Source: Bacteroidaceae bacterium
GTDB taxonomy: Bacteria; Bacteroidota; Bacteroidia; Bacteroidales; Bacteroidaceae
DNA: 64,000 bases
Assembly (NCBI GenBank): GCA_017560125.1
Contig: JAFYOS010000025.1
Location: 82,424-146,423, forward strand
Reading direction: 5' to 3'
Both the position numbers and the translations under genes were made by a program. The notes under the pieces are model-generated. The model was not told the origin of the DNA, did not search any database, and saw only the letters and a program-made list of their open reading frames with translations. Positions within the stretch are counted from its first letter, which is position 1; every line of letters starts with the position of its first letter. Positions 345-58,685 of this stretch are shown here, one piece after another.

Positions 345-363
345 AGAAATGGAGGACAGGAGT

Positions 364-3300: not shown

Positions 3301-3444
3301 ATGGTCATCAACGGCGCATCGTCGGGTAACGAAATACAGAGCCCCATGGCGATAGTCGTTCTTGGCGGTCTGTTCACATCCACACTGCTGAACATATATG
3401 TCATCCCCATTGTATATAAATGGCTGATACGCAGAAACGGCTAA
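364..3444 (+). CDS. CusA/CzcA-family (HME-type) RND efflux pump
   Basis: A 1026-residue inner-membrane proton-driven pump, the usual RND length. It begins MLNAIIKFSLNNKLAIMLAV, a typical cytoplasmic start followed by TM1. The first periplasmic region contains DVFPDLTSPTVVV and a VERLVTFPIE segment characteristic of heavy-metal efflux RND proteins. TM4 carries GSLVDDAIIDVENV, the acidic proton-relay motif, and the second half repeats the fold (MSIPAIIGLITLFGIATRNGILLVSR in TM10). The start at 364 was chosen over an upstream in-frame ATG because GGAGGACAGG lies just before it and it gives the canonical N-terminus. It follows the adaptor gene by 19 nt. CusA/CzcA pumps export Cu/Ag or Co/Zn/Cd, but ion specificity cannot be read here, and no TolC-like gene follows inside the window. 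Confidence 0.93.
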   Translation: MLNAIIKFSLNNKLAIMLAVLLVTIGGIYSAQKIEVDVFPDLTSPTVVVLTDATGMAPEEVERLVTFPIETAVNGATNVRRVRSTSSQGFSFVWVEFDWGVDIYKARQVVSEKLVTLADALPQGITPMLAPQSSVMGEILFVGLQADSTSLMEVRTLAEWVLKPAILATGGVSQVTIIGGDFKQYQVLADADRMALYGVTMQELEATVAAMSNNTAGGVLREYGNEYTLRGMGRTNDIEELGRTPVKMHNGRPIVVADIAEVCIAGAVRKGYASQDASPAVILSISKQPGINTLNVTKNIERNLASVAKSLPADVKVDTKIFRQADYIHSSVNNVSRALIEGAICVVLVLFLFLVSLRTTVISIVAIPLSLLGTVIALYLLDMDINTMTLGGMCIAIGSLVDDAIIDVENVYKRLRENHARRPEERLSTFRIVFEASSEIRSSIIHATLIIMVTFMPLFFLSGLEGRMLKPLGIAYLISLLMSLIVAMTVTPLMCKWMLSGEKYLQRQERKNWVESHLLTKYAASLEKALAHGKAVIATTVTLFVVALILFAFMGRSFLPEFNENALTIAAVSRPGVSLDEAHRIGNLIEKELLQIPEVTSTARRTGRGELDEHSQTSNGAEIDVNFELDKRSKSEFLHEVRSRMATIPGVITSVGQPLEHRIDHMVSGTQADLAIKVFGPDLSTLFTIGNKVKEILGSMPEVVDLNVEQQVETPQLQIRADRERLAHYGITMEQFNGFIEAAFPGKKLGEVYEEERSFDLILRLTHDNTDSMEGVKNALIDTHNGDKVPLEAVASVVSCGGPAAISRENVQRKVVVSANIASGNVNGVVDNIVELLDRELPLDEGYRLEYGGQFESAQSAARTLWLTSFVALCIVFTLLCGEFKSMALSAVVMLNLPLALIGGVIATYFTSCVMSIPAIIGLITLFGIATRNGILLVSRYQHLRAEGKSLDEAVMLGSTDRLTPILMTAFTSALALVPMVINGASSGNEIQSPMAIVVLGGLFTSTLLNIYVIPIVYKWLIRRNG

Positions 3445-43170: not shown

Positions 43171-43881
43171 TTAAATGAATTTTTCGCGTTTCTGCAGATT
43201 CAGCAGCCCTAACATCGCCCACACCACACTGCCAATAGCAAGGAATATGCGGTTCTTGAGCACGGTGGCGCTCCATACAGCCGCATGAATATTCTCGGGC
43301 ATGCTCAAGGGGTTAAGCGTCACATCCCACATGCTGTGTTTTGTAAGGTCGGCCGAAAGGACCACCGCTACTATTCCGCATATGATAACCAGTATGGCGG
43401 TGGCGTTGCCGTTGCGTGTCAGTGTGGAGAAAAAGAACGCAAGGTTGCCCATGAACAGCACAGGGTACATCAGTTCATAGGCTATTTCGAACTGATTGAC
43501 CGGGTATATGAGATATTTTGCTATCCATGCATATATCACCAATATGAAGAATATTTCCACATAAATGAGTATCAGTCGCGCAAACCACACCTTGTATTTG
43601 TAGTTGGGTATTCCGAAGAGGATCTCCAATATGCGGTTGTCGGCATCGTTCTGTATGCCGAAGACCGCGGGATAGAATATAAGCAGTAGCGACGGGAAGA
43701 ACAGGAAACGATATATGTGCTCGTCGCCGGGCACCTCGCCGCGATAGGCGCTGTCGAACATAAAGTAGGCGAACAGCGCAAAGGCGGTCAGAAGAAACCA
43801 TATGAATTTACCTCCGAAGATAATCTTCATATTATAGACCGACAAGCGGAGGTATGCTTTGCAATTATTTATTATGTTCAT
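43171..43881 (-). CDS. ABC-2-type transporter permease, last gene of the export operon
   Basis: A 236-residue membrane protein with about six helices: FIWFLLTAFALFAYFMFDSA, FLFFPSLLLIFYPAVFGI, RLILIYVEIFFILVIYAWIA, LMYPVLFMGNLAFFFSTL, ATAILVIICGIVAVVLSA, and FLAIGSVVWAMLGLLNL near the C-terminus. The cytosolic GIQNDADNRILEILFGIPNYKYKVWFAR loop resembles the ATPase-contacting loop of ABC-2 permeases. It has no ATPase gene of its own beside it; the ATPase at the C-terminus of the fusion protein encoded just upstream is the obvious partner. It lies 78 nt after that gene, and a terminator follows. Confidence 0.82.
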   Translation of the reverse strand: MNIINNCKAYLRLSVYNMKIIFGGKFIWFLLTAFALFAYFMFDSAYRGEVPGDEHIYRFLFFPSLLLIFYPAVFGIQNDADNRILEILFGIPNYKYKVWFARLILIYVEIFFILVIYAWIAKYLIYPVNQFEIAYELMYPVLFMGNLAFFFSTLTRNGNATAILVIICGIVAVVLSADLTKHSMWDVTLNPLSMPENIHAAVWSATVLKNRIFLAIGSVVWAMLGLLNLQKREKFI

Positions 43882-43901
43882 AATTTCGTTAAATCATATT
43901 T

Positions 43902-43955
43902 TATGTCGCGCCGGCCGGCTGCGAAGCGCTGTTCACCACGCGCCGGCCTGCGATA
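43902..43955 (-). other. GC-rich imperfect hairpin inside the export operon
   Basis: TATGTCGCGCCGGCC and GGCCTGCGATATA can pair with interruptions; CGCGCCGGCC also occurs twice as a direct repeat (43907 and 43939 regions). It is the only long gap (78 nt) inside the 3' half of the operon. It may stabilise or partly end the mRNA before the final permease gene. Confidence 0.4.
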
Positions 43956-43959
43956 TAAA

Positions 43960-46900
43960 TTACAGGTTTTTCAGCAAGCAGAGGTAGGCATCCTCGAGGT
44001 TGGCCTCTACCCTCTCTGCATTCTCGTAGGGTTTTTCAACAGATATATAGCGTATTCTAATTTTGTCACCATTCATCATATTGTTCACTATGAGCCTGTT
44101 ATCGAGCGTATCAATCTTCTCGGGCTCGATATCGAACGCCCATACTTTGTTCTCGGCGAACTTGGTCATATCAAGCGGGTTGCCATAGTATTTAAGCTCG
44201 CCTCGATTGATGACAGCCACCTGGTTGCACGAGCTTGCAATGTCCTCGATGATGTGGGTAGAGAAGATGATGATGCGGTCGCGGCTGAGCTCCACAAGCA
44301 GGTTGCGGAAACGTATGCGCTCGCGGGGATCGAGGCCGGCAGTGGGCTCATCGACAACAAGTATTCGCGGCAGGTGCAACAGAATGAGGGCTATACCTAT
44401 ACGCTGTTTCATACCACCCGAGAACGAGCCTATCTTGTGGTCTTTGCGCTCGTACATGTGCACAGCCTTGAGTACATACTCCAAGCGCTCCTTACGCACA
44501 ATGGGATCGGTAATACCCTTGAGCATAGCCTGGTAGTCGAGGAATTCCCACGATGTCATGCTCTCGTACATGCCGAATTCCTGGGGCAGGAAGCCAATGA
44601 GGCTCTGCAGCTCCTCGCGATACTCGCGAGTGTTCATACCATTTATCCAGATGGTACCGTAGCTCTGCTCCAGAATACCGGTGATGATGCGCATCATGGT
44701 AGATTTTCCGGCGCCGTTGGGGCCAAGCAAACCGAACATACCGGTCTTGATGGTAAACGACACGCCACGAAGCGCCTTGAAGGGTATGCGGCGTTTGCCG
44801 ATGATGGGAATGCTCTTGATGATTGTGAACAGGGTTCTACGTGTTTCGGCGAACCTTCCGGTGAGGCGCTCCACGTTAATGCGATGAACGTAGAGGTAGT
44901 CCGATGTCAGTTTCACCGCAATGCCCAACGCCCACAGGAAGCCGATGACTACAGCAGCCGGGGTGTTATCGATGCGTTCCGAAATGAGAATAACCGTCAT
45001 CAATGGCAGCAGGCCATAGACAACCTTGTGAATGATGTTCACAATGCCCTTGTGGTGCTCGATTTTGTATTTGAGATACTCCCTGATTTTTTTCCACAGA
45101 TCGTAGAAACCGGCACACACAGCAAACGACAATGCAATTATCCAGAATTTATTTTCGAGATAATATGTCACCATATAGAGCAGGAAGAGATATACGACAA
45201 CCTGCCACGACACGGAGATGAAATCGCGCAGATGGTGGAATTCGCTATGCAATCCCAATCGCTTGCGCAGTTTTATTCCGCTCTCCCACTGGCGGGTAAA
45301 TTTGTTCGACCAATCGTATATCTTGACAAGGTTGCTTATCTCTATTACTATCTGGTCGTCCTTGTCTATAATCTTGTTGTCGGCTATACGTATCGATTTC
45401 TTGATAAAATATGTACATGCAGGTATGAGCACCGTAAGCACCATGAAATAGAGCAACTGCACGAATATTCCATCAATGTAGAGATATATGTATATCATTC
45501 CGGCAATGTAGATGGCCAAATGCAGCAGGTGCATGGGGCGGCTCAGCGAACGATACCATTTGAGTATGTTCTCCAGCGACAGATAGACGGTGGGGATAAG
45601 TATCAGCGTGAGCAGGGCCGAGAACGACAGACCGCCAATGACGGTAACCGCAAACGGTGCTCCAATTGCTCCGGCATAGTCCGTATCGCCCATAGCCATG
45701 GGCAACATGGCTATAACCGTGGTAGTGGTGGTGATAAGAATGGGGCGCAGACGCGAATATCCACTGGTGATAAGCGCTCTGTTACGTCCATATCCCTTGC
45801 GACGCAATATGTTGGAGTAGTCGATGAGGATGATACCATTGTTCACCACCACACCCAGCAGAATGAGGAAGCCGGTCATGGTGTTGGCATTCATCAGGTT
45901 GTTGCCGGTGATGAACAGGCCGAGCAACGAACCGATAGCGGCCAACGGAATGGTGAACAACAGCACAAAGGGGGTTACTACCGACTCGAAGACCGAGGCC
46001 AATATCATGAATATAAGTATCAACGACGCCAATATGAGGAAATTGAATTCACTGAGCGACTCCTCGGAGCGCACCGTTTCTATGGCAATGCCGCTGGGCA
46101 TGTTGTACGAAGCAATCAGCTGGTCTATCTCCTCGCGATAACCGTTAAGCACATCCTTGGGCAGCTCCTGGCTCTGCGTGATACCATAGAAAATGGTTAT
46201 CTCGCGCTCGCGATTGATGCGGCGTATGCTCGAGAGGTCGCGCGTCTGCTTGATGGATGCTATCTGCTGCAGTTCGTGCAGACCACCGTTGGCATCGGGA
46301 ATCATCACACGTCGCAGGTCGTCGATGTTCTTCTGTATATTTTTCTTTTTCTTCTCCTCCTCGACGCTGATATCCTCCTTGATGACTATAGCATATTCGT
46401 CGTTAGCCAGTTTCAGGTAGGTATTGGTTGTAAGTTCCTTGTTCAGCGAGCTCAATCCGTTGAGGATGTTCTGTCGTGTTATATTGTACGACGCCAGCAG
46501 TATGGGGTCGAAAATAAGCTGTATTTCGTTGCGACGGCCGGGGTTGGTAGCCCAGTTCCACGCCACGAACTCCATTTCGCGCAAATTGTAGCGTATGTTA
46601 TCGGCTACGATGTCCATCATTTCGAAATCGGAGCCCTTGATGACTATGCGCTCGCTGTTGTCGCCAACGCCAAGCACGCTCATGAAGCGGTTCATTGTCG
46701 ATGCGGCGCTGCTCTGTCCGTTACCCGACGAGCCGGTTGTTATTCTCGCCTCGACATTGGGCAACTGCACAAGCTTGTTCAGTTCCTCTACAATGGCAGT
46801 AATGCCGCGGCCCTCCTTGTGGTAATCGTCCTTGAGCACCATGGTCATGGAGGCGGCGTCCTCTTGTATGCGGCAAATGAGTTCCTCCTTCTCGGGAAAG

Positions 46901-48648
46901 CTGTCGAGCTTCTCTTCAAGGATGGCAACCATTCTGTCCGAATACTCCAATGTGCTCGACGAGGGCATGGTGAGCGTAATGTTCACCCTGTCGGTGTTCA
47001 CTGGCTTGCTGCTGTTGGTGTTGGTGGAGAGAACCGCCATCCACAATGCCACAAGCAACACCACGCAGCCGGTGATGCAGATTGCGGGCTTGCGCAAACT
47101 GGTCTTCAGCAGTATGGTGTATATCTGTATGGGGCGCTGGTTTATCGACATCTTGTCGTGGAAGACGCTCTGCCCCTTGTTTCGCTTCAGCATGACATAT
47201 GTGGACATCGGAATGAGAAGCAATGCCACCGTCAGCGAAAATACAAGCGTTGCGATAATAGACACGCCTATGTGCTCGCCTATCAGGCGTATGAAAACCT
47301 CGTCGGAGAAGAGGAATGGCAGGAACACCGTGATGGTGGTGAGCGTCGAGGCAATAATGGATTTCCACACCTCGCGCGTACCTTGCGTGACGGCCGTCTC
47401 GGCGTTTTTGCCATGCGTGAACAGGCGGTATATATTCTCGAGCACCACAATACTGTTGTCGAGCAACATACCTATGGCCAATGCCATACCTATGAGCGTA
47501 AGGCTGTTTATGGATATATCGCAATAGTAGAACAGATTGAAGGCTGCCAATATGGAGATGGGCATCGAGAGTGCTATGAAGAGCACCAGGTGGATATTGC
47601 GCAGGAAGAACCACAGCACCACGATGGCAAGCATGGCTCCGCTGATGCCCAATTCCACCACCTGATTTATATTTTTCTCGATTTCATCGGCCGAATTGGA
47701 TTGTATTATCAGCTCAATCTCCTCCGAAGGGAATTCGGCATTAAGCGCATCGATGCGCTTCTTTGTCCTGTCCGACAGCTCGAGGAGGTTCACCTGTGCA
47801 TCGTTTACAAGCGCCACAGATATGGCCTCTTTTCCGTTCACACGGCTGAGCGTGGTCTCCTCCTTCATGTCGAAGAAGACGGTGGCTATATCCTTCAGGT
47901 ATATGGGGCCGGGTGCCACTATCACATTCTCTATTTCGGATATGTGGTCGTAGTTGGCATCGAGATGTACGTAGTAACGTATGGTGGGGGTATTGATGTA
48001 GCCAAGGAATGTGCGCTCCTGGTTGTACTGTGCAAGAACATCCCTGATGTGTGCCGGGGTGAGCTTTAGCGCCGACAGAGCAGCCTCGTTGAAATGTATC
48101 TCGATGGCCTTTTCGCGACCGCCATATACATTTACGGCCGCAACACCATCTATATTCTCGAGCTGGGGTTTTATGTCCTTATCGACAATGGCGCGCAACC
48201 TATCCACTCCGCCGGTACCACGCACCTGCACAGTCATGAAGTTGTTGTTCACTCCATTTACGCTTGCCCTCTCGATATTCACTTTGAAACCGTCGGGCAA
48301 CGAAGGAATTATGCTGTTTACCCTCTCCTGTAATTTCAGGGTGGTATATTTCAGGTTCATTCCCTTTTTGAAATCGACGCGAATCTCTCCCTGTCGGTTT
48401 CTTGCTGTGGCCTCGAGGTTCTCCACACCCTCTATGGTGCTTATGACGCCCTCGAGCGGGATGACAGCCTGCGATTCCATGTATGCAGGGGTGACGTCCT
48501 TGTCGCTGGTCACCCTTACAAAGAGCATGGGCAGCTCGGCATTGGGGAGCATCTCCACCTTCAGCTGCTTATAGGAGACATATCCCAAAAGGGAGATGGC
48601 TATAAACAGCATGCATATTGTTATCTTTCGTTTTATAATGAAATTCAT
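43960..48648 (-). CDS. RND efflux pump fused to a membrane linker and an ABC ATPase
   Basis: A 1562-residue protein in one uninterrupted frame. Residues 1-1035 are a complete RND (AcrB-like) pump: MNFIIKRKITICMLFIAISL at TM1, the periplasmic porter regions, TM4 with GMALAIGMLLDNSIVVLENI, and the second half with LGVVVNNGIILIDYSN in TM10. Residues ~1040-1085 add two helices. At 1100-1111 IVIEISNLVKIY looks like the first strand of an ABC ATPase, but ~180 residues with four more helices (about 1146-1250) intervene before the ATPase resumes at ALRGVSFTIKTG. Walker A GPNGAGKS is at 1309-1316, signature SGGMKQR at 1410-1416, Walker B ILVVDEP at 1429-1435, the His switch STH at 1463-1465. The gene begins 11 nt after the previous RND gene. 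I infer dual function in one export machine; biochemistry is unknown. Confidence 0.9.
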   Translation of the reverse strand: MNFIIKRKITICMLFIAISLLGYVSYKQLKVEMLPNAELPMLFVRVTSDKDVTPAYMESQAVIPLEGVISTIEGVENLEATARNRQGEIRVDFKKGMNLKYTTLKLQERVNSIIPSLPDGFKVNIERASVNGVNNNFMTVQVRGTGGVDRLRAIVDKDIKPQLENIDGVAAVNVYGGREKAIEIHFNEAALSALKLTPAHIRDVLAQYNQERTFLGYINTPTIRYYVHLDANYDHISEIENVIVAPGPIYLKDIATVFFDMKEETTLSRVNGKEAISVALVNDAQVNLLELSDRTKKRIDALNAEFPSEEIELIIQSNSADEIEKNINQVVELGISGAMLAIVVLWFFLRNIHLVLFIALSMPISILAAFNLFYYCDISINSLTLIGMALAIGMLLDNSIVVLENIYRLFTHGKNAETAVTQGTREVWKSIIASTLTTITVFLPFLFSDEVFIRLIGEHIGVSIIATLVFSLTVALLLIPMSTYVMLKRNKGQSVFHDKMSINQRPIQIYTILLKTSLRKPAICITGCVVLLVALWMAVLSTNTNSSKPVNTDRVNITLTMPSSSTLEYSDRMVAILEEKLDSFPEKEELICRIQEDAASMTMVLKDDYHKEGRGITAIVEELNKLVQLPNVEARITTGSSGNGQSSAASTMNRFMSVLGVGDNSERIVIKGSDFEMMDIVADNIRYNLREMEFVAWNWATNPGRRNEIQLIFDPILLASYNITRQNILNGLSSLNKELTTNTYLKLANDEYAIVIKEDISVEEEKKKKNIQKNIDDLRRVMIPDANGGLHELQQIASIKQTRDLSSIRRINREREITIFYGITQSQELPKDVLNGYREEIDQLIASYNMPSGIAIETVRSEESLSEFNFLILASLILIFMILASVFESVVTPFVLLFTIPLAAIGSLLGLFITGNNLMNANTMTGFLILLGVVVNNGIILIDYSNILRRKGYGRNRALITSGYSRLRPILITTTTTVIAMLPMAMGDTDYAGAIGAPFAVTVIGGLSFSALLTLILIPTVYLSLENILKWYRSLSRPMHLLHLAIYIAGMIYIYLYIDGIFVQLLYFMVLTVLIPACTYFIKKSIRIADNKIIDKDDQIVIEISNLVKIYDWSNKFTRQWESGIKLRKRLGLHSEFHHLRDFISVSWQVVVYLFLLYMVTYYLENKFWIIALSFAVCAGFYDLWKKIREYLKYKIEHHKGIVNIIHKVVYGLLPLMTVILISERIDNTPAAVVIGFLWALGIAVKLTSDYLYVHRINVERLTGRFAETRRTLFTIIKSIPIIGKRRIPFKALRGVSFTIKTGMFGLLGPNGAGKSTMMRIITGILEQSYGTIWINGMNTREYREELQSLIGFLPQEFGMYESMTSWEFLDYQAMLKGITDPIVRKERLEYVLKAVHMYERKDHKIGSFSGGMKQRIGIALILLHLPRILVVDEPTAGLDPRERIRFRNLLVELSRDRIIIFSTHIIEDIASSCNQVAVINRGELKYYGNPLDMTKFAENKVWAFDIEPEKIDTLDNRLIVNNMMNGDKIRIRYISVEKPYENAERVEANLEDAYLCLLKNL

Positions 48649-48659
48649 CTGTTTGCTTT

Positions 48660-51600
48660 TTATTTCTTGAACGAGGCTTTCATCTGTTCAAAAAGGTAAT
48701 ATACGCAAGGTATCACAACAAGACTGAGCAGGGTTGAGGTCACAAGGCCGCCGATTACCGCTATTGCCATGGGGGCACGCAACGAGGCGCCGTCGCCAAA
48801 TGCTATCGCCATGGGCAGCAGCGACAGAATGGTGGTAATGCTGGTCATAAGAATGGGGCGGATGCGCTGCTGGGCAGCCTCCACAATTGCATCGACAAGC
48901 GGCATGCCATCCTCTTTCAGCTGGTTTATTCTATCGACAAGTATAATAGAGCTGTTCACGGCAATACCCGACAGCATGATTATACCAATGACACCCATGA
49001 TGTTTATGGTGGTGCCGGTGACAAAGAAGAGCAATATGGCTCCCACCAACGCCAACGGTATGGTCAGCAGGATGGTGAAGGGGTGAAGCAACGACTCGAA
49101 CTGCGATGCCATGACCATATACACAAGTACCACCGAGAGAATGAGGGCAAAAATAAGTCCTCCCATAGATTCCTGGCGTTTCTCTTCCTCGCCGGTGATG
49201 TCTATGCTGTAGTTGGCCGGCAATTCAATGACGTCGAGTGCCGCGCGAATATCCTCCGACACCTTGCTGAGCGAGTATCCATCCTCGAGGTTTGCTGTCA
49301 CCTTGGCTATACGGCTCTGGTTGCGGCGGAAAATCTCTTTCGGTGCCACATCGCGACGTACATCGGCAAGTTCGGCAAGACGGAACTGCTTTGAATTGCT
49401 TGTGATTATCATGTCGTTAAGCTGCGACAAGGGTATCTCGGGCACTTTTATGATGATATCGCGCATTTCGCCCTTGTAGTCCATCTGACCGGCGCTCTTG
49501 CCCGAGAGCTGCTCCTGTATCTGGGTGACGATGGTTGTCACATTCAGGTTGTTTATGCCGGCCAGGGCACGGTTTACAGTGATGACCATTTCGGGGGCAC
49601 CATCTTCTATCGAATTGCTCACATTGAAGAGGCCGGGAACACCCTTGGCTAGCTCGCTTGCCTGTGCGGTGATGTCGGCAAGTTCGTCGAGCTCCTCGCC
49701 CTTTATTTCAATGACGATAGGAGCATCCTCGCTACCCATGAGAGCACCCAGTGAATTGCGATCCTGCACAAACGACAGCTCGAGTCCCTCGATGTCGGTG
49801 GTATTGGCAAAGAGCTCCTCCATCAATTCCTCGGGGGTGTACTGCGACTCGGGCGAGAGAATCACTTTCAGCGAAGCGGTGTTGTCGCCATCGAATATAT
49901 TGCCACCCGAGCTGTATCCGGGGCCTATGTGGCTGTATATGGTACAGAGCGAATCATTGGTGATGGCGAAAATGAGATTTTCAATAGCTTCGACGGTCGA
50001 TGCGGTGCGCTCGAGGCGTGTACCCTCCTGCATTTTCACCTCTACTGTGAAGGCGTTATTATCCGATTTAGGCATAAATTCCGCGCCGATGAAGGGCAGA
50101 AGGCAATATGTGCCACATACCATCAGCAACGACAGAGCTATAACCAACCAACTGCGCTTGATGATGCCGCGCAACATATCCGAATAGCCTTTTATTCGGA
50201 TGGATGCATCGGTCTGCACCGCCTTTTGCGCCTTGTTCTTGCGGAACATTCTTTCGTACAAAGTGGGTATCACCAATATGGCGACAAAAAGCGACGACAC
50301 AAGCGAGAAGGTCACCGTCCATGCCTGGTCTTTGAACAGCTCGCCCGAAGCTCCATGCAGATATACAATGGGCAGGAACACCACGATGGTTGTAAGGGTA
50401 GATGCCGTAACGGCTCCGCCCACCTCGCTCGCGCCCTGCACGACAGCCTCTTTCACCGATAGCCCCTTCTCTTGGTTGCGGAAGATGCTTTCAATCACCA
50501 CAATGGCGTTATCGACAAGCATTCCGGCTCCAAGCGCCAGGCCACCCAAGGTCATTATATTCAACGTCAGGTCGTTGAAGAACATCAGGTTGAATGTAGC
50601 GATGATAGAAATAGGCATTGCCAACGAAATGACGAGTGTCACCTTGAAACGGCGCAGGAACAGATAGAGCACTATCACTGCAAGCAGCACACCAAGGATG
50701 GCACTATCCTTCACCTCGCCTATCGCACTGTTGATGAATGTACCCTGATTGCTTACAACATCGAATTTATATCCGGGGAGCGCCTTTTCTATTTCGGCAA
50801 ATCTTTTCACCACGCCCTCGACGGTCTTCACCGTGTTGTGCTGCATTTCTTTATAGACCGAAAGGCCTATGCAGCGACGGCCGTTTATGCGAACGATATT
50901 TTCGGGGCGCTCGTTCTCGAACGATATTTCGGCAAGTTCCTTCAGGTAGATGGGAGCCTTACTGCCACCAGCGGCCGAGGCCTGTACATTAGCTGTGCCA
51001 CCGGCAGTGGCTTCGATGTTTTTATAGCTTACGATGATGTTACCGAAATCCTCTTCGCTGCGGAGCATGTTGACACCGCTAACGATGTACTGCTCACCCA
51101 TTTCCACTACGCGACCACCCGCCAGACGCTGGTTTTCCTCCACTATCTGTCGGCTGATGGCATCAACGGTGAGGTTGTATGCCGCAAGCTTATAGGGGTC
51201 GGTCTTTATCACCAGATTGCTCACCTCGCCACCTGTCAGGGTAACATCGGCTACGCCCTCTACACGAATAAGCTCATTCCTGATGTACGAATCGGCTATC
51301 TTGCGCAGGTCGGCCATGTTGGTTATATGGTCGTGCGACATGCCGACAAGGATAATGGGATCGGTATTGGGGTTGTTCTGTGTAATTTCGAGCTTGGTCA
51401 GTTTTTCGTCCTGCGCGAAGGTGTTCATAGCCTTCTGCAAATCGAGAAACGCCTCGTCCATATCCTTGTTCCATGTATATTCCACGGTCATCTGTGCCAT
51501 TCCAGCCTTCACCACCGACGACACGGTGAGAACGTCGCGCTGACGTATTGCCATCGACTCCATTCTCTTCACAAAGAGCTTCTCAATCTCTTCGGGTGGA

Positions 51601-51764
51601 CGCTCCCCGGCCGTTATATCTACATATAACTTGGGATTGTTCAGGTCGGGTAGCAAATCGACGCTGAGCTTGTCGTATGATATTTTGCCTAACAACATGA
51701 TACCCAATACCGCCATAAGGATGGTAATTGGGTTGTTTACGGCGAATTTTATTATTTTCTTCAT
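48660..51764 (-). CDS. RND efflux pump (AcrB/MdtB-like)
   Basis: A 1034-residue inner-membrane RND pump of normal length. N-terminus MKKIIKFAVNNPITILMAVLGIMLL, then DKLSVDLLPDLNNPKLYV. TM4 region: GGLALGAGMLVDNAIVVIESIF; the second half has GVIGIIMLSGIAVNSSIILVDRIN. The second proton-relay acid of AcrB (Asp-Asp in TM4) is Asp-Asn here, as in several HAE-type pumps of this phylum. It lies 9 nt downstream of the adaptor gene and 11 nt upstream of the RND-ABC fusion; the two RND proteins may form a mixed trimer, as MdtB and MdtC do. Confidence 0.95.
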   Translation of the reverse strand: MKKIIKFAVNNPITILMAVLGIMLLGKISYDKLSVDLLPDLNNPKLYVDITAGERPPEEIEKLFVKRMESMAIRQRDVLTVSSVVKAGMAQMTVEYTWNKDMDEAFLDLQKAMNTFAQDEKLTKLEITQNNPNTDPIILVGMSHDHITNMADLRKIADSYIRNELIRVEGVADVTLTGGEVSNLVIKTDPYKLAAYNLTVDAISRQIVEENQRLAGGRVVEMGEQYIVSGVNMLRSEEDFGNIIVSYKNIEATAGGTANVQASAAGGSKAPIYLKELAEISFENERPENIVRINGRRCIGLSVYKEMQHNTVKTVEGVVKRFAEIEKALPGYKFDVVSNQGTFINSAIGEVKDSAILGVLLAVIVLYLFLRRFKVTLVISLAMPISIIATFNLMFFNDLTLNIMTLGGLALGAGMLVDNAIVVIESIFRNQEKGLSVKEAVVQGASEVGGAVTASTLTTIVVFLPIVYLHGASGELFKDQAWTVTFSLVSSLFVAILVIPTLYERMFRKNKAQKAVQTDASIRIKGYSDMLRGIIKRSWLVIALSLLMVCGTYCLLPFIGAEFMPKSDNNAFTVEVKMQEGTRLERTASTVEAIENLIFAITNDSLCTIYSHIGPGYSSGGNIFDGDNTASLKVILSPESQYTPEELMEELFANTTDIEGLELSFVQDRNSLGALMGSEDAPIVIEIKGEELDELADITAQASELAKGVPGLFNVSNSIEDGAPEMVITVNRALAGINNLNVTTIVTQIQEQLSGKSAGQMDYKGEMRDIIIKVPEIPLSQLNDMIITSNSKQFRLAELADVRRDVAPKEIFRRNQSRIAKVTANLEDGYSLSKVSEDIRAALDVIELPANYSIDITGEEEKRQESMGGLIFALILSVVLVYMVMASQFESLLHPFTILLTIPLALVGAILLFFVTGTTINIMGVIGIIMLSGIAVNSSIILVDRINQLKEDGMPLVDAIVEAAQQRIRPILMTSITTILSLLPMAIAFGDGASLRAPMAIAVIGGLVTSTLLSLVVIPCVYYLFEQMKASFKK

Positions 51765-51773
51765 TATTCAAAA

Positions 51774-52832
51774 CTATTTTTGAATTTTTATTTTGCTGTT
51801 GTCGCGCAGTGTCTCGTAGCCTCTTGTAATCAGCTGCTCCTCGACCTTCAAACCGTGAAGAACCTCTATGTTGTCGTTATCCTCGATGCCTGTTCTGATG
51901 TCGCGCATCTTTGCAAATCCCTTCTCGGCAACATAAACATACTTGCGGTTGCGGTTGCTCATGACAATCTCCTTGGGAACGACGATTGTATTTTCGGCCT
52001 TCTTCACAACGATGTCGGCCTTCACGAACATACCGGGACGCAACTTCATCTTGTCGTTGTCTATGAGGAGCTTACCCTTGAATGTACGTGTCTCGCTGCT
52101 GATGGCAGGCGAGAGCTCGCTTACCATTGCTCGGATGGTGTCGTTGGGAAGGGTGTAATGGGTAATGAATACCTCCTGACCGGTCTTCACCTCGTTTATG
52201 GCGCTCTCGGGCAGGTTTATCTCCATCACCATTTTCGAATAGCTCATGATTGACACGATGGATGTACCCGACGCCAGCTGCACATTGGGTGTGTAGTGGG
52301 GCAGATTTACGATGACGCCTGTAAAGGGTGCCTTTACATTCATTTTCTCGAGATTGAGCTTGGCGTTTTCGTAGCTGTACTTCGCGTTGGTGATGGCAAC
52401 CTCGGCGTTTTTCAGTTCGCGCAATGTAACACCGCCCTTCTCGTAGATGGCTCTGTTCTTGGCCTCTTCCTGCTCGGCTATCTCGAGGCTCAATCGTTTG
52501 GAATCGATGGCGATGTCGTTCTCGTACTCGTTGTTTTCGAATTTTACGATAACCTCGCCGGCCATCACCTTGTCGCCGAGTTTATAGGGCGCTCCTGTGC
52601 GGGGGTTTCTTTGCAGCTTGTATTTACCTGCCACCTCTGATTTCAGTTCCACCTCGGAATCCGAAAGCGCAGTTCCCGATGTGCTGTTGTACTTGCTTAT
52701 GGAGCTTTTGCTTACCTCTACTACCGAAACGGGCGATGCCAGCTCGGTCGCACTCTCTTGTTTCTGTTTGTTACATGCAGTTAATGCGAAGGATGTCGCC
52801 GCTATCAACAATATTGCTTTATTTATCTTCAT
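51774..52832 (-). CDS. RND periplasmic adaptor lipoprotein (HlyD/AcrA family)
   Basis: A 352-residue lipoprotein: MKINKAILLIAATSFALTAC ends in a lipobox with Cys20. Barrel-sandwich halves appear at ~60-115 (SDSEVELKSEVAGKYKLQ; LGDKVMAGEVIVKFEN) and ~165-205 (NVKAPFTGVIVNLPHYT), joined by a coiled-coil hairpin at ~117-160. Then come beta-barrel (SMVMEINLPESAINEVKTGQ region) and membrane-proximal (KLRPGMFVKADIVVKKAENT) domains. It links the RND pump to the TolC-like channel. Gene gaps are 36 nt to the channel gene upstream and 9 nt to the pump downstream. Confidence 0.95.
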   Translation of the reverse strand: MKINKAILLIAATSFALTACNKQKQESATELASPVSVVEVSKSSISKYNSTSGTALSDSEVELKSEVAGKYKLQRNPRTGAPYKLGDKVMAGEVIVKFENNEYENDIAIDSKRLSLEIAEQEEAKNRAIYEKGGVTLRELKNAEVAITNAKYSYENAKLNLEKMNVKAPFTGVIVNLPHYTPNVQLASGTSIVSIMSYSKMVMEINLPESAINEVKTGQEVFITHYTLPNDTIRAMVSELSPAISSETRTFKGKLLIDNDKMKLRPGMFVKADIVVKKAENTIVVPKEIVMSNRNRKYVYVAEKGFAKMRDIRTGIEDNDNIEVLHGLKVEEQLITRGYETLRDNSKIKIQK

Positions 52833-52868: not shown

Positions 52869-54359
52869 TTATTTTTCGGTTTCGGGAACAAGGTTCAATG
52901 GTATTATAGGCTTGTTGTTTTCGAAATCGTAGAGCGTCAATATCTTCATATTAAGCAGCTCCTTTTTATATTCTATTACTGTCGATACGTACGACATTTT
53001 TTTGTTCGAAAGCTGTGTCTGGAACTGGTTCATCTCCATACCGGTGAGCTCGCCGTTGCGATATCTCTCGGCATTGAGGTCGTATGTGAGCTGTGCGTTT
53101 TTCACGCTCTTTTCGGCTATAGATATCTGTGTGAGCAGATTGTTGAGGTTACGATAGCTCTTTCTGATGGCTATCTCTATCGCCTTCTTTTCTTCGTCGG
53201 TTTCGAGGTTGTGCATCTCGATGGCTATCTCCTGTGCCTTGATGCGTGCTTTTCTCTCGCCCCAATCGAATATGGGCACGTTGAACGAGAGCGACACGCG
53301 CGGGTTGTTTGTGGGGGTTTTGTAGATGTCGCCCAGACGCTCGTTGTCGCCCATGATACCTATCGACAACGACAGCTCGCCATTGAAGCTGTTGGTCTCT
53401 TTTATCTGCTTCATCTGCAGGTCGAGCTCGGTGCGCGATATTTCGCGCTGTTTCAGTTCAAGACGTGAGCTGAGTGCATTGGCGATGGCCTTTCCAAGGT
53501 CAACGCTGACGGGCTCGGCTGTTACTTGAGCAATTATCTCGATGTCGGTATCTATATCTATTCCAAGTATTTTCTTGAAATCGTCCTTGGCATTTTCGAG
53601 CGACACGATGCGGTTGTCAACGGTGCTTCGTGCGGTTGCAAGGTTCAGCTCGGCCTGGTAGAGCTCGTCCTTGGTTGATAGGTCGGCATCTACTTTGTTC
53701 TTTATTATATTGAAATTGGCCTCGGCGTCTTTCAGCTCGGCCTTGCTTATCTCGAGGTTATTCTGTGCCGTATATACGCTGTAGAACTGGTTGGTGATGG
53801 AGTTTTCGAGGGTAAGACGACGCAATGCATAGTTTATCTGTGCATTTTCGTAGTCCAATTCGATGTTCTTCAGGTCGAGCTTTATGGCGTTGTAACGGAA
53901 CAGCGGCTGAGTAACGCTCAGGTAGAGGTCGTTGCTATATGCGCTGTTGTCGTTTTCGCCGCCCGCAAGGCTCGATTTGTTGTTCTGCCATCCGAATTTA
54001 TTGTTGAGCGACACGGTGGCACCTGTCCACAGAATGGGCTGCGAGATGCTGAAGGTTCCCGACGACGCGAATGATTCGTTGGTGTACCACTCCGACAATC
54101 GGCTCTCGAAATAGCGATTGCGACTGTATGATATAGGGTTCAGCGTCAGCGAAAACTTCGATTTCAACGATGCTCGCTGAGCATTCAGGCTGAATTTGTA
54201 TCGTCTGAGGTTCATTAACGCAGTCTTCAGTTCGGGACTGTTCTCTATGCTGTAATTGAGTGCATCATCGAGCGTCATGCTTATCTGAGCATTGGCGTCA
54301 ATACCCAAAAGGCACACCAACGATACAATCCACATCCATTTGTTCTTTAGTCGTAACAT
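52869..54359 (-). CDS. TolC-family outer membrane efflux channel
   Basis: A 496-residue outer-membrane protein with signal peptide ending near DANA-Q. It shows two TolC structural repeats: MTLDDALNYSIENSPELKTALMNLRRYKF with an outer-strand region, long helices (NLEISKAELKDAEANFNIIKNKVDADLSTKDEL), and the second repeat (AIANALSSRLELKQREISRTELDLQMKQIKE; NAERYRNGELTGMEMNQFQTQLS). It forms the trimeric exit duct used by the adaptor and pump encoded downstream. Confidence 0.95.
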   Translation of the reverse strand: MLRLKNKWMWIVSLVCLLGIDANAQISMTLDDALNYSIENSPELKTALMNLRRYKFSLNAQRASLKSKFSLTLNPISYSRNRYFESRLSEWYTNESFASSGTFSISQPILWTGATVSLNNKFGWQNNKSSLAGGENDNSAYSNDLYLSVTQPLFRYNAIKLDLKNIELDYENAQINYALRRLTLENSITNQFYSVYTAQNNLEISKAELKDAEANFNIIKNKVDADLSTKDELYQAELNLATARSTVDNRIVSLENAKDDFKKILGIDIDTDIEIIAQVTAEPVSVDLGKAIANALSSRLELKQREISRTELDLQMKQIKETNSFNGELSLSIGIMGDNERLGDIYKTPTNNPRVSLSFNVPIFDWGERKARIKAQEIAIEMHNLETDEEKKAIEIAIRKSYRNLNNLLTQISIAEKSVKNAQLTYDLNAERYRNGELTGMEMNQFQTQLSNKKMSYVSTVIEYKKELLNMKILTLYDFENNKPIIPLNLVPETEK

Positions 54360-54401: not shown

Positions 54402-57400
54402 TTAATCTTTTCTTTTCACCAGTTTTACGGCATCGGCCGATATATATCTGAGCTTTGTCTTGTTAGTGAGGGTTACGGTCATGGTGTCGCATGCGACATC
54501 GAATGTACCAAGCAGTGTCCATCCGTCATTCACGCGGCGCATATTCAGTTCGTGCTCCTCTATGTAGTCGTCCGTTTCTATAATGAAATTGTACATTCTG
54601 CGGCCTCGGTTATGCCATCCGCCACCGAAATCCCACGGGCGGCGCACATGGTAATAGAGCTCGTAACGACCATGCTCGGGAACGGGCAGTTTCCATTTTG
54701 CATACTCCTCGCCACCACCGGCACGAATGACTGCTGCCGAACGGATCGATTTTCCATAGAAAGCGCCGTCGGTGGTCAACGTCCAGCGCATGGGCGGGTT
54801 CCACTCCCTGAAACCGGAGTATTTGAAATCCTCGTCGATGCTTTTTTTCTTTATCCACTCGTTGAGAAGGCCCGAGGGAGGGGGCACCGATAGTTCGAAG
54901 AGTGTTTCGTCCTCGTTATCGACAATTATTTCGTCCTTTTCGAGCAGGAAATCGGCCGACAAGGGGTATTCGCCCTCGGGGATAAGTGTCTTGCCCGTTT
55001 CGACCTTGCCGCTATGGGGCGCTATGTGCATGGGAAGGTTCTTGGAGAAGAGCGCTGTGCAGGCAAACATATTTGGTGCCTCTTCCCAGTGGGTGATGAT
55101 GCGTTTCGTCTCTCTGGGACCAAAATTGACTACCCATTCGTTGGGCTTCTTCGCGCCATCGAATGTCTGCTTGTCGCCGTTACGCGTCCAGAAGATGAGC
55201 TTCATGTTGACGGTTCCGGGAACATCGGATATATTCGAAATTACTATCTCGCCCTGGAAGACATCCTTCTTGGCTGTGGTAACCTTGGTTACCGAGGGGG
55301 CACCAAAAAGGAATTCGGATACCTGCACAGGTTTCTCCCACTCCTTGAGCACGCCGAGAAGGTCGCTACCAGTCTGGCGGCCAATGCTGTCAAGCATCGC
55401 TTCGAACGAGAGGTTCTTGAATGCGTGGGCCTTCACATAATTGAAGAGCGTATCGCGGAATGCAACCACTCCCAACGCCTTTTCGGCGCCAAGGAACAGT
55501 TTCTTGCCCTCGACCTCTATGATGTTGTTCATCAGGTTGCGCAGCTCGACATCCTTGAGCAAATCCCTGAATGAGCGCTCCTGCAACAGAAGGACACATT
55601 TTTCCTCGTTGCTCAATCCGTTCACATTGCGCTGCAGGAACTGTTCCCAAAAGGGTGTGCGGCTGAGCCTGAGCTCTATAAGCCTGTTGGCCACCGGCCA
55701 ATCGGTCGAATAGATATTGTATTTGAAATTATACATCTGCGGGAACAGATAGTAGGGGTTCTCGGTCATGGTTACCGAGCGACGTCCCATGCGTCCCTCG
55801 TCGAACTTGACGCCACCATTTTGGTCGCGCAGCAGCGTTGAGAGCATTGAGAACACCTCGGCCTGTATCTGAACATCGGTAAGTATCCTGCCACCGCGGT
55901 CGCGATTGTGTTCGCGCATATCCTTGCGCCACTTGATGTGCCAGTGGAAATCGAATTGCCACAGTCCGAAGCCGCGCTCGGGAAGGAAGAGCATTTCGGG
56001 CTGCTGGCGCTCTTGCGAGCGTGTCCATGTGCGCGAGAAGCTGGCAAAATGCACGGGCACCTCCACAAACGAGAAGCGCTTGAAAGGATAGGTCAATTCG
56101 AAATCCTTCTCCAGCTCGCGACGCATCTCTCTAATGACCTTGGGCAATGTATCCTGTATCGAATCGAAGTGCTCCACGAAATAGTCGTGACCGTTGATGT
56201 ACCACACCGAGTACTCGGTATTGTCCGATTCCACCGACAGGTTTTTGTAATCGCCAATGAGCAGCGACAGCGACTGCAACGGATATTCGAGCGTGAAACT
56301 GGTGCTTAAGGAATCTTCGCTGAGCGATATTTTTCCCTGCGACACGGGGGTCATGCCTGCGTTGGGCGTAACCGTCATGCTGAAATTGGTAAAGTAGTTC
56401 TGCTGCCAGTCGGGGCTCTCGTCGCTGTAGCACACACCGGGGCGCGGATACCAATAGCTCTCAGGGGTGAGCATTGTGAAATCGGCAGCCTGGAAAGCAT
56501 AGCGCTTGCCCATTTTATATTTGTTCAGTCCGCCACTCTCCACGAGCAGTTCCTCGGGGATATCGAGGTAGCAGATGCGCTCGTCTATGACGCCCTCGTA
56601 CTTGAGCAGCAAACGGATGGTGTCCTGCACGCTCTTCTCCTCGGGGAAGGTGATTTTCACAAGATGCTCCTCGCGCTCCACGCCCAACGATGCGCCATTG
56701 CTGAGTGCCTCGGTAACTGCAAAGCCGGGGTTAAGGGTAAATGTAAATTGTGCGGAGCTCTTGGTGGGACAACCTGTTATCTCGGTTTCGAAAAATAGTT
56801 TCTCGCCCTGCTGCACAACATTTATATTGCAGCTGTCGGTTACTATTTTGGGGTTATTGACATTCTGGTTGTTCAGCTCAATCAGCTGGCTGCGGTAACT
56901 ATCCTTGTCGGTGTAGTTGCTCACGTGGTGATAGCCCAGGAAGAGGCTTCCCAAGAACATCACCACTGCAAAAACGCCCCATGGCAACAGCGCATAGTGC
57001 GAATTGGGCAAACGTCTGAACATCAATATGCTGAACAAGATGAAGCTGAAGCCCAAAAAGAGATAGAGCAGACGGTGCACAATGAGCAACGGCAGGTCGG
57101 CAAAGCCGGTGATGGTCGATTCCATCAGTGGCACATTGTAGCACATGTAATCGAACAGATAATAGCACTTATCGCCTATGTAATAGGCGGTAAGGCCTAT
57201 ATATCCCAGCAGTATGACAAACGTCAACGCCTGGTTTTTTATCACAAGCATCAACAGCGTCGAAAGGCCTATGATATACACAAGCGTGGGCAGATTTATC
57301 AGCAGGAAGTAGCTGAAGAAACTGCCTATATCCACCGCCATGCCCAGCTTGGTGTAGCCACATACAATGCCTATCGCTATCACCAGGAAATTGAGCAGCA

Positions 57401-57743
57401 GGAACACGCGTATGGTTCCCCACATCTTGCCAAGCAGATATTCGGCGTTGCTCAACGGCCTCACATAGAATATCTCGGAGGTGTCGAGCTGTTTGTCGCG
57501 TTTAAGGTATTCCGAAGCAAGAAATATGGACACAATGGCCTGTCCTACGTTGAACGTAAGCATCAGTGAGTAGCCCAACAGCGTGGGTATGCTCTCTACG
57601 TAGCGCGACTCCTCGAGCGTGGCAATAGCTGTGAAAATTGTTGCTACGACCGTGAGGGTGGCAAACACCTTGAAGAACCAGCTTCGGTAAAGAAGCTTCG
57701 ATTCGTATTTCGAAACAGATTGTATGTTTTTTAGAAAGAGCAT
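54402..57743 (-). CDS. ABC-2 permease fused to an M1-like domain without zinc motif and a golvesin-like domain
   Basis: A 1113-residue membrane protein. Residues 1-272 hold seven to eight helices of an ABC-2 permease (VFATLTVVATIFTAIAT; VGQAIVSIFLASEYLKRDKQ; EYLLGKMWGTIRVFLLLNFLVIAIGI). From ~285 to ~800 the part outside the membrane resembles the M1 aminopeptidase fold attached to similar Bacteroidota permeases, but HExxH and GxMEN, the M1 catalytic motifs, are absent (the equivalent region reads MLFLPERGFGLWQFDFHWH). Residues ~985-1113 match golvesin/xanthan-lyase-type beta domains (ELYYHVRRPW ... VTLTNKTKLRYISADAVKLV). Its ATPase is the gene 48 nt upstream. The non-catalytic M1 part might grip a peptide substrate; this is inference. 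Confidence 0.85.
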   Translation of the reverse strand: MLFLKNIQSVSKYESKLLYRSWFFKVFATLTVVATIFTAIATLEESRYVESIPTLLGYSLMLTFNVGQAIVSIFLASEYLKRDKQLDTSEIFYVRPLSNAEYLLGKMWGTIRVFLLLNFLVIAIGIVCGYTKLGMAVDIGSFFSYFLLINLPTLVYIIGLSTLLMLVIKNQALTFVILLGYIGLTAYYIGDKCYYLFDYMCYNVPLMESTITGFADLPLLIVHRLLYLFLGFSFILFSILMFRRLPNSHYALLPWGVFAVVMFLGSLFLGYHHVSNYTDKDSYRSQLIELNNQNVNNPKIVTDSCNINVVQQGEKLFFETEITGCPTKSSAQFTFTLNPGFAVTEALSNGASLGVEREEHLVKITFPEEKSVQDTIRLLLKYEGVIDERICYLDIPEELLVESGGLNKYKMGKRYAFQAADFTMLTPESYWYPRPGVCYSDESPDWQQNYFTNFSMTVTPNAGMTPVSQGKISLSEDSLSTSFTLEYPLQSLSLLIGDYKNLSVESDNTEYSVWYINGHDYFVEHFDSIQDTLPKVIREMRRELEKDFELTYPFKRFSFVEVPVHFASFSRTWTRSQERQQPEMLFLPERGFGLWQFDFHWHIKWRKDMREHNRDRGGRILTDVQIQAEVFSMLSTLLRDQNGGVKFDEGRMGRRSVTMTENPYYLFPQMYNFKYNIYSTDWPVANRLIELRLSRTPFWEQFLQRNVNGLSNEEKCVLLLQERSFRDLLKDVELRNLMNNIIEVEGKKLFLGAEKALGVVAFRDTLFNYVKAHAFKNLSFEAMLDSIGRQTGSDLLGVLKEWEKPVQVSEFLFGAPSVTKVTTAKKDVFQGEIVISNISDVPGTVNMKLIFWTRNGDKQTFDGAKKPNEWVVNFGPRETKRIITHWEEAPNMFACTALFSKNLPMHIAPHSGKVETGKTLIPEGEYPLSADFLLEKDEIIVDNEDETLFELSVPPPSGLLNEWIKKKSIDEDFKYSGFREWNPPMRWTLTTDGAFYGKSIRSAAVIRAGGGEEYAKWKLPVPEHGRYELYYHVRRPWDFGGGWHNRGRRMYNFIIETDDYIEEHELNMRRVNDGWTLLGTFDVACDTMTVTLTNKTKLRYISADAVKLVKRKD

Positions 57744-57791: not shown

Positions 57792-58685
57792 TTAGTCGTT
57801 AAGCCACAGGTTCAGGTTTTTCTCCATGAAATAGACATAGGCGTGCTCGAGGTTCGGGGGCATATTTTCGGCCTCGTACTCGTCGAACTTGTCGGCAACG
57901 ACCTGTATATCCCACATGTCGTCCTTGGGGATGGTGGCAATGATGGGATATTTCTGATTGATGGCATTGTACTCCTTGTCGTTCACACACAGACGCCACA
58001 CCTTGCCCTCGGCGCGCTTGAGCATCTCCTCGGGAGAACCTCTGAAGGATATTTCGCCTTTGTTCAGCAAGGCCATATTGTTGCACGAGCTGGATACATC
58101 GCCCACGATGTGCGTTGACAGGATGATGGTGGTATCGTTGCTACTAACCTGTGTCAGCAGGTTTCTGAAACGGATGCGTTCCTCGGGATCGAGACCTGTT
58201 GTCGGCTCATCGACTATTATCACCTTGGGCTCGTGTATAAGCGCCTGGGCAATACCCAAACGGCGTTTCATACCACCCGACAGGTTGGCCGCATAGCGCT
58301 CGCGCACCTCGTATAGTCCCACCTTCTCGAGCATGTCGGCTACCGCCTTCTTGCGCACCTTGTTGTTATTCATACCCGAAAGGCGTGCAGCGTAGTCGAG
58401 GAACTCGGCCACCTTGTACTTAGCAAAAAAGCGGAAATCCTGTGGCAGGTAGCCAAGGATACGTCTTACCTCCCTGCGCTCTTTCAGCAAGTTGCAACCG
58501 TACATTTCTATTTCGCCCGATGTAGGCTCCATCAGAGCCACCAATATGCGCATAAAGGTCGATTTGCCGGCACCGTTGGGCCCCAACAATCCGAACATAC
58601 CTGACGGTATCTCTAAATTTATATCCTTCAGGGCGTGGTTGCCATTGGGGTATATCTTATTTAGATTTTTTATTATTATTGACAT
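57792..58685 (-). CDS. ABC transporter ATP-binding protein, first gene of the export operon
   Basis: A 297-residue ATPase of the ABC-2 drug/antibiotic type. Walker A GPNGAGKST at 35-43, Q-loop GYLPQDFRFFAKYKV, signature LSGGMKRRLGIAQALIH, Walker B VIIVDEPTTGLD, His switch LSTH, then an ~80-residue C-terminal regulatory part. It is clearly paralogous to the ATPase domain of the RND-ABC fusion: both share GLDPxERIRFRNLL and a Ser-Ser-Cys-Asn stretch after the His switch. It starts the seven-gene minus-strand operon; the 230-nt region before it is AT-rich and I found no convincing promoter box there. Confidence 0.93.
   Translation of the reverse strand: MSIIIKNLNKIYPNGNHALKDINLEIPSGMFGLLGPNGAGKSTFMRILVALMEPTSGEIEMYGCNLLKERREVRRILGYLPQDFRFFAKYKVAEFLDYAARLSGMNNNKVRKKAVADMLEKVGLYEVRERYAANLSGGMKRRLGIAQALIHEPKVIIVDEPTTGLDPEERIRFRNLLTQVSSNDTTIILSTHIVGDVSSSCNNMALLNKGEISFRGSPEEMLKRAEGKVWRLCVNDKEYNAINQKYPIIATIPKDDMWDIQVVADKFDEYEAENMPPNLEHAYVYFMEKNLNLWLND

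What the first reader, a model, noticed from the sequence alone, without database searches (positions are those of the whole stretch)
43960..48648. One 1562-residue protein joins an RND pump to an ABC ATPase
The frame is unbroken from a complete AcrB-like pump (1-1035) to a complete ABC nucleotide-binding domain with intact Walker A, signature, Walker B and His switch (1309-1465). RND pumps run on proton flux and ABC transporters on ATP; having both in one chain is rare and suggests either shared control or a pump that can be energised two ways. TM4 keeps one acidic residue (LLDN), so proton use is possible.
Basis: partly seen in the sequence, partly recalled or inferred. Interest (0 to 1): 0.78.

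Follow-up and report, generated by a model that had tools for sequence, protein, structure and literature searches.

The report
RND pump fused to split ABC ATPase
A gut-type bacterium and its relatives carry a seven-gene export machine in which a drug-pump-type protein and an ATP-burning motor are one chain, with membrane helices apparently wedged inside the motor domain, a design that may couple two export engines normally kept apart.

Summary
One unbroken 1562-residue frame (43960-48648, minus strand) carries a full AcrB-type RND permease (residues 2-1025) and a complete ABC ATPase. It is no accident: of 198 genomes of the window's order, 25 hold this RND family; 23 are fused, 2 are cut by contig ends before the C-terminus, none was seen unfused. 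Fused members also occur in another order and outside the class.

Two things were missed. First, the ABC domain starts far upstream of its Walker A: a first-strand/A-loop motif (NLVKIY, Y1111) lies 198 residues before it, against 23 in the sister ATPase. About 175 residues with about four hydrophobic helices interrupt the domain, in 28 of 28 non-redundant members. Second, the gene sits in a conserved operon: ABC ATPase, ABC permease with M1-like periplasmic part, TolC, adaptor, RND1, RND2-ABC, small membrane protein.

Best reading: the fused ATPase pairs with the stand-alone one to drive an ABC exporter tethered to a two-permease RND-TolC duct. 'One pump energised two ways' is possible but weaker. 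Ten searches of open papers showed no such fusion.

The parts
43960..48648 (-). RND2-ABC fusion protein, 1562 aa
   Evidence: fused in relatives
45574..48645 (-). RND permease domain, residues 2-1025 (ACR_tran)
   Evidence: best solved relative by sequence of the family profile is MdtB
47458..47460 (-). D397, TM4, equivalent of AcrB D407; the next residue, N398, stands where AcrB has D408
   Evidence: (D 28 of 28; next residue N 23, S 2, T 2, C 1), aligned with DD permeases of the same genome
45361..45564 (-). Residues 1029-1096: linker with about two hydrophobic helices
   Evidence: hydropathy; conservation
45310..45360 (-). Residues 1097-1113: displaced first strand and A-loop (VIEISNLVKIY, Y1111) of the ABC domain
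   Evidence: best-scoring place for the sister ATPase's first strand, at the same alignment column, in 28 of 28 members; K1109 and Y1111 invariant
44782..45309 (-). Residues 1114-1289: insert inside the ABC domain, about four hydrophobic helices flanked by basic stretches
   Evidence: no Pfam family found in more than 1 of 20 members, no PDB sequence match
44164..44781 (-). Residues 1290-1495: rest of the ABC nucleotide-binding domain, all catalytic motifs
48660..51764 (-). RND1, 1034 aa, unfused partner RND permease
51774..52832 (-). Periplasmic adaptor (RND_mfp, 185.3 bits, cut-off 94.9)
52869..54359 (-). TolC-type outer membrane channel (OEP)
54402..57743 (-). 1113 aa: probable ABC-2-type permease with an M1-peptidase-like part without an HExxH and a golvesin C-terminal domain
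   Evidence: the ABC-2 match is in relatives, not in the window's own protein
57792..58685 (-). ABC1, stand-alone ABC ATPase, 297 aa, 41% identical to the fused one
43171..43881 (-). Small membrane protein, 236 aa, about six hydrophobic helices, possible second ABC permease half
   Evidence: no clear Pfam match

Best explanation
This is the tethering subunit of a composite exporter. SHOWN by sequence: a conserved seven-gene operon encodes two RND permeases, one adaptor, one TolC channel, two ABC ATPases with complete catalytic motifs that are closest to each other among the ABC proteins compared, one probable ABC-2-type permease carrying an M1-like part, and one small membrane protein; in every member whose C-terminus could be seen intact, one ATPase is joined to the second RND permease, and its sequence is interrupted after the A-loop by an insert of membrane-type helices. 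INFERRED: (1) RND1 and RND2 form a mixed trimer on the adaptor and TolC, as MdtB and MdtC do; (2) the fused ATPase dimerises with ABC1, and the pair drives the permease (with the small membrane protein as the other half), moving or extracting a substrate from the cytoplasm or inner membrane; (3) the membrane insert anchors the ATPase beside the RND transmembrane domain, so the ABC exporter opens next to the RND entrance; (4) substrate passes through the RND-adaptor-TolC duct to the outside. If one RND2 sits in each trimer, there would be one ABC exporter for each duct.
For: All seven genes, whole and in this order, in 18 of 59 relative loci that carry the fusion gene or part of it; the other 41 are cut by locus or contig ends, or have a broken or fragmentary gene, and none shows a different order (some genomes give two loci). 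No unfused RND2 seen among 25 of 198 genomes with the family. Both ATPases keep Walker A, Q-loop, signature, Walker B with catalytic Glu, and H-switch: 28 of 28 and 21 of 21. ABC1 and ABC2 group together apart from 16 other ABC proteins of this genome, 100/100 support. Relatives of the 1113-aa protein match ABC2_membrane_2 in 9 of 12 at E up to 1, best 1.7e-06. The displaced A-loop is the best site for the sister's first strand in 28 of 28, at the same column; its distance to the Walker A is 185-230 (131 in one) against 23 in 19 of 21 sisters. The A-loop stretch is a conserved island (58% mean pairwise identity) between stretches of 35% and 36%, with 28% in the insert's helices; the rest of the NBD is 77.5%. 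In 25 loci checked, no flanking gene was shared by more than two loci.
Against: No structure could be predicted, so the split domain and the helices rest on sequence and hydropathy alone. The window's own 1113-aa protein has no ABC-2 match at E up to 1. [quoted passage not shown] The mixed RND trimer is by analogy. In 2 of 28 named-record loci (L054, L080) the fused frame is broken; L080 also has a broken TolC. L052 lacks part of the insert, so its helices are not strictly conserved.
Confidence: 0.55

Rival explanations
1. ATP-driven or dually driven RND pump: the fused NBD and ABC1 pull on the RND transmembrane domain through the insert helices, supplementing or replacing the proton relay.
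For: Covalent link with hydrophobic helices directly after RND TM12 and inside the NBD. Both RNDs lack the D408 and K940 equivalents, and D408 is the residue that a review passage describes as protonated and deprotonated during AcrB's cycle (PMC8277102, passages).
Against: The operon encodes a probable ABC-2 permease that an ATPase pair would normally drive. The same replacement of D408 and K940 is seen in a twin-RND operon of this genome in which no match to this operon's ABC proteins was found. D397, R966 and T973 (AcrB D407, R971, T978) are invariant, which is odd if protons were no longer used.
Confidence: 0.2
2. Regulatory or assembly tether: the NBD is a clamp or sensor that gates assembly of the RND duct by ATP binding, with little transport work.
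For: Fusion guarantees co-localisation; the insert helices are poorly conserved (28% identity), as in a plain anchor.
Against: Full catalytic motif sets, including catalytic Glu and H-switch, are invariant in 28 of 28, arguing for real hydrolysis.
Confidence: 0.15
3. Residues 1097-1113 are not part of the NBD; the resemblance to a first strand and A-loop is chance, and the NBD simply lacks its first strand behind a long membrane linker.
For: Only a 12-residue match. In 8 of 28 members at least 1 of 200 shuffles of that protein scores as high somewhere (up to 7 of 200, L043), and the highest of 300 shuffles of the window protein reached 15.5 against its 16.0 bits. No structure is available.
Against: Best place in 28 of 28 members at the same alignment column, 4.4-18.6 bits above the second best; no shuffle of 200 reaches it in 20 of 28. 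K1109 and Y1111 are invariant, in a conserved island amid variable sequence.
Confidence: 0.1

Closest known systems
MdtABC-type two-permease RND pump
   Same: Two neighbouring RND permease genes with an adaptor; best PDB sequence match of the RND2 profile is MdtB; a review passage names MdtBC as a rare heterotrimer (PMC8277102).
   Different: No ABC domain in MdtB or MdtC (recalled); here RND2 carries an NBD and the operon a probable ABC exporter; D408 and K940 equivalents are replaced in both permeases.
GldA/DrrA/ABCA-type ABC ATPases
   Same: Best NCBIfam ABC matches of the NBD are GldA and DrrA; ABCA-type phospholipid transporters lead the PDB list.
   Different: Far under the GldA cut-off (178.6 against 402.6 bits); fused to an RND permease; about 175 extra residues between A-loop and the rest of the NBD.
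MacAB-TolC
   Same: ABC motor with adaptor and TolC, exporting from the periplasm (recalled).
   Different: No RND subunits (recalled); [quoted passage not shown]
SecDF and other RND fusions
   Same: RND chains can be joined to other units: SecD and SecF are one chain in Thermus thermophilus (review passage); an Snf7 homologue fused to an RND-family transporter is reported in some Actinobacteria (PMC11237479, passage).
   Different: Neither of these joins an ABC ATPase.

Membership tests
AcrB-type RND permease (HAE/ACR_tran) | Full-length ACR_tran homology | tested here: met
   Residues 2-1025, profile 3-1020 of 1021, E 2.6e-155
AcrB-type RND permease (HAE/ACR_tran) | Proton relay D407, D408, K940, R971, T978 | tested here: not met
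   Equivalents of D407 (D397), R971 (R966) and T978 (T973) are invariant; D408 is N (23), S (2), T (2) or C (1); K940 is N in 28 of 28 (alignment to other RNDs of this genome). Relay residues from PMC8277102 passages; R966/T973 placed by the spacing of seven
AcrB-type RND permease (HAE/ACR_tran) | NCBIfam curated cut-off of the best RND model | tested here: not met
   NF033617.1 470.8 bits against 1250
AcrB-type RND permease (HAE/ACR_tran) | Works with adaptor and TolC-type channel | tested here: inconclusive
   Both genes lie upstream in the same order in the relative loci that reach that far; physical assembly not tested
ABC ATPase (NBD) | Walker A, Q-loop, signature, Walker B with catalytic Glu, H-switch | tested here: met
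   28 of 28
ABC ATPase (NBD) | A-loop aromatic about 25 residues before Walker A in an uninterrupted domain (recalled) | tested here: not met
   Y present in 28 of 28 but 131-230 residues before Walker A
ABC exporter | Two NBDs and two transmembrane halves | tested here: inconclusive
   Two NBDs are clear; one ABC-2 permease is probable from 9 of 12 relatives; the second half is weak
GldA (TIGR03522) | Score over the curated cut-off | tested here: not met
   178.6 against 402.6; no match over cut-off in the genome
M1 aminopeptidase (upstream permease) | HExxH zinc motif | tested here: not met
   No HE..H in 22 of 23 members, the window's own included; the one in L033 is at residue 885
MdtBC-like mixed RND trimer | Two permeases in one trimer | not testable with these tools
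   Adjacent RND genes only

The most novel reading that the evidence does not exclude
An RND export machine driven by ATP: the NBD is split by transmembrane helices so that nucleotide binding is transmitted mechanically into the RND transmembrane domain, in permeases that have lost two of the three core AcrB relay residues; RND conformational cycling would be run or gated by an ABC motor in the same chain.
Probability: 0.15. Interest if true: 0.88.

Novelty: new variant of a known kind. Interest (0 to 1): 0.64.

Why it matters
RND pumps (proton-driven) and ABC exporters (ATP-driven) are treated as separate ways to power a TolC duct. A family that joins them in one chain wherever it could be seen whole, with a second ATPase and a probable permease beside it, suggests a relay that takes a substrate through both membranes in one complex. 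An NBD interrupted by membrane helices would be an unusual arrangement for one of the most common protein domains and would make direct coupling between ATP hydrolysis and an RND permease testable.

Tried and rejected
Rejected: assembly or frameshift artefact. 19 full-length fused members among 198 genomes of the order, and 25 full-length plus 1 truncated fused member among 28 related named-record loci. The other 3 of the 31 loci (L081-L083) matched only ABC genes and were left out.

Rejected, with a caveat: chance resemblance of the A-loop. The match is short; in 8 of 28 members 1 to 7 of 200 shuffles score as high somewhere in the protein. What argues against chance is that the best place is the same column in 28 of 28.

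Rejected: the idea that loss of D408 and K940 by itself marks an ATP-driven pump. A twin-RND operon of the same genome without a match to this operon's ABC proteins shows the same pattern.

Led nowhere: origin of the insert. No Pfam family was found in more than one of 20 members, no PDB sequence matched at E up to 10, and hhalign gave no relation to either permease or to the RND helices. Homology of the two permeases was not detected. No flanking gene was shared by more than two of 25 loci, but many loci hold only a few kilobases beyond the operon. Ten answered paper searches showed no RND-ABC fusion and no NBD split by membrane helices; only open-licence papers are held, and for the hits I saw listings only, apart from two papers. 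In PMC8277102 I saw passages only, and only the first 300,000 of 747,799 characters are held; in PMC11237479 passages only.

Limits: the genome search scores only the best few candidates of each genome (at most 4, 6), so an extra unfused copy could be missed. The RND2 search used E up to 1e-150.

Rows dropped: the motif counts use 28 rows (RND2-ABC) from 48 full-length members, 30 of 53 (RND1), 32 of 52 (small membrane protein), 21 of 21 (ABC1) and 23 of 23 (1113-aa protein) after removing rows 90% or more identical; truncated members were left out. In one search two of 21 ABC1 rows gave spacings of 40 and 55, probably because the script took the first Tyr after residue 5 in N-terminally longer frames; the other 19 gave 23.

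Full report
THE OBSERVATION. The window holds an unbroken frame of 1562 codons from ATG to stop at 43960-48648 on the minus strand. Pfam ACR_tran covers residues 2-1025 almost end to end (E 2.6e-155) and ABC_tran covers 1293-1437 (E 1.5e-27). The window is part of a 2.6-Mb genome in 37 contigs (98.5% complete, 6.4% contamination). I take its order to be Bacteroidales from the titles of the named records of its close relatives.

THE FUSION IS THE RULE. A search of 198 genomes of the order with the linker (residues 1030-1272) found 23 with a match. A search of the same order with the RND2 profile found 25 of 198 genomes with a family member above 600 bits; the next RND permeases score 560 bits or less, in the same range as one contig-end fragment of a member (G022, 533 bits). 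In 19 the whole RND part lies in a frame of 1536-1640 residues, and all 19 are among the 23. In 4 more (G011, G137, G022, G088) the gene is cut by contig ends but its C-terminal part is fused. In 2 (G014, G187) the contig ends before the C-terminus, so fusion cannot be told. None was seen unfused; at most 4 candidates a genome were scored. In G088 the N-terminal piece stops 148 bases from its contig end (L098), which I read as an assembly edge. In a separate set of 28 related loci from named records (Bacteroidaceae, Bacteroidales and Prevotellaceae, nearly all labelled MAG or uncultured, many from ruminant guts by their titles), 25 have a full-length fused frame, one is truncated but fused, and two (L054, L080) have broken frames. 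The linker profile found 6 of 395 genomes across the phylum and 5 of 395 across the class; G000 and G105 are in both lists, as are G261 and G355 (another order of the class), and two (G313, G540) lie outside the class. All these matches lie in frames of 1561-1640 residues. The samples overlap and are not rates for the whole phylum.

THE SPLIT ABC DOMAIN. In the sister ATPase of the same operon (57792-58685) the A-loop tyrosine lies 23 residues before the Walker A. In the fused protein the corresponding sequence, VIEISNLVKIY, lies at 1101-1111 and the Walker A starts at 1309. A position-specific score made from the first strand and A-loop of 21 ABC1 proteins, slid along 28 non-redundant fused proteins, has its best place at this site in 28 of 28 (10.2-23.7 bits; second best 0.7-9.7) and at the same alignment column in 28 of 28, with margins of 4.4-18.6 bits. 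Each score alone is not overwhelming: in 20 of 28 no shuffle of 200 reaches it, in 5 one does, in 2 three do and in 1 (L043) seven do. K1109 and Y1111 are invariant. The distance to the Walker A is 185-230 residues in 27 members and 131 in one (L052), which lacks part of the insert. Mean pairwise identity is 35% before this stretch, 58% in it, 36% after it, 28% in the helical part of the insert, 41% in the last stretch of the insert, and 77.5% in the rest of the NBD. Averaged hydropathy shows about two helices between RND TM12 and the A-loop and about four between A-loop and Walker A. Even numbers would keep all NBD parts on the cytoplasmic side, where the AcrB C-terminus lies (recalled); in L052 only one stretch of the shortened insert passes the 1.3 hydropathy mark that I printed, so the parity there is not settled. 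The insert has no convincing Pfam or PDB sequence relative.

THE OPERON. On the minus strand, in order: ABC1 (297 aa), an 1113-aa protein, TolC, adaptor, RND1, RND2-ABC, and a 236-aa membrane protein. The other 41 of the 59 (L047 among them) are cut by locus or contig ends or have a broken or fragmentary gene. The named-record loci hold only 10 kb upstream, so most show six genes with the 1113-aa one cut. L050 has only a short piece of the 1113-aa gene near its contig end. No locus shows another order. L040 and L078 appear to be the same contig by length and were not both kept in the non-redundant set. Relatives of the 1113-aa protein match ABC2_membrane_2 in 9 of 12, an M1 peptidase part in 8 of 12 and a golvesin C-terminal domain in 12 of 12, at E up to 1; the window's own protein has the golvesin match (2e-10) and an M1 match under its cut-off, but no ABC-2 match. 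It lacks HExxH in 22 of 23 members, so the M1-like part is probably not a working protease of that kind. The 236-aa protein has about six hydrophobic helices but no clear family. In 25 loci checked, flanking genes were shared by at most two loci.

ENERGY COUPLING. In RND2, D397 (AcrB D407), R966 (R971) and T973 (T978) are invariant in 28 of 28; N398 stands for D408 in 23 of 28 (S 2, T 2, C 1), and N936 for K940 in 28 of 28. RND1 is alike: D 30 of 30, N for D408 30 of 30, N for K940 30 of 30 (AcrB relay residues from PMC8277102 passages). Among other RND permeases of this genome, three keep DD and K (L120, L121, L123), the one at window 277-3444 has DD and R, and two in an operon without a match to this operon's ABC proteins (L122/L124) have DN and N. 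So the changed relay is real but not peculiar to the ABC-linked pump. CusA-type metal pumps also manage with one TM4 aspartate (recalled). Both ATPases have complete catalytic motifs, 28 of 28 and 21 of 21.

ORIGIN. In a tree of 65 NBDs, ABC1 and ABC2 lie together apart from 16 other ABC proteins of this genome (100/100), and ABC2 forms one group (100/100). The outgroup branches are long, the tool warns of long-branch joins, and no true GldA was in the set, so a duplication within the operon is likely, not proven.

MECHANISM AND VERDICT. The part list is what one would expect of an ABC exporter docked to a two-permease RND duct, with the fused NBD as tether. That is my main reading (0.55). An ATP-driven RND cycle (0.2) and a regulatory clamp (0.15) remain open, and so does a chance A-loop (0.1). 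Ten searches of the open-paper library showed no report of an RND-ABC fusion. Known RND fusions that I saw in passages are SecD-SecF and an Snf7-RND chain. I rate it a new variant of a known kind: most parts are of known families, but the join, the split NBD and the operon as a whole appear undescribed in what I could search.

Noticed in passing
54402-57743: Probable ABC-2-type permease with an M1-peptidase-like part that lacks the zinc motif, and a golvesin C-terminal domain; its role in export is unknown.
   Followed up: partly
L124 9037-16917 (own genome, contig C26): A second twin-RND operon with TolC-like and adaptor-like matches but no match to this operon's ABC proteins; both RNDs have the DN/N pattern instead of DD/K.
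   Followed up: partly
L052 10849-15447: Natural variant of the fusion that lacks about 67 residues of the membrane insert, covering roughly one helical hairpin.
   Followed up: partly
277-3444: Another RND permease in the window (1055 aa, GTG start) with DD in TM4 and R in place of K940.
   Followed up: partly
43717-48069: A 1450-codon open frame on the plus strand lies antisense to most of the fusion gene; probably a by-product of codon use.
   Followed up: no
58917-63416: 1499-aa protein upstream of the operon with papain-like, laminin-G, PKD and DUF5013 matches.
   Followed up: no
L054 and L080: Two MAG loci in which the fused frame is broken; in L080 TolC is broken too, pointing to sequence quality.
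   Followed up: no
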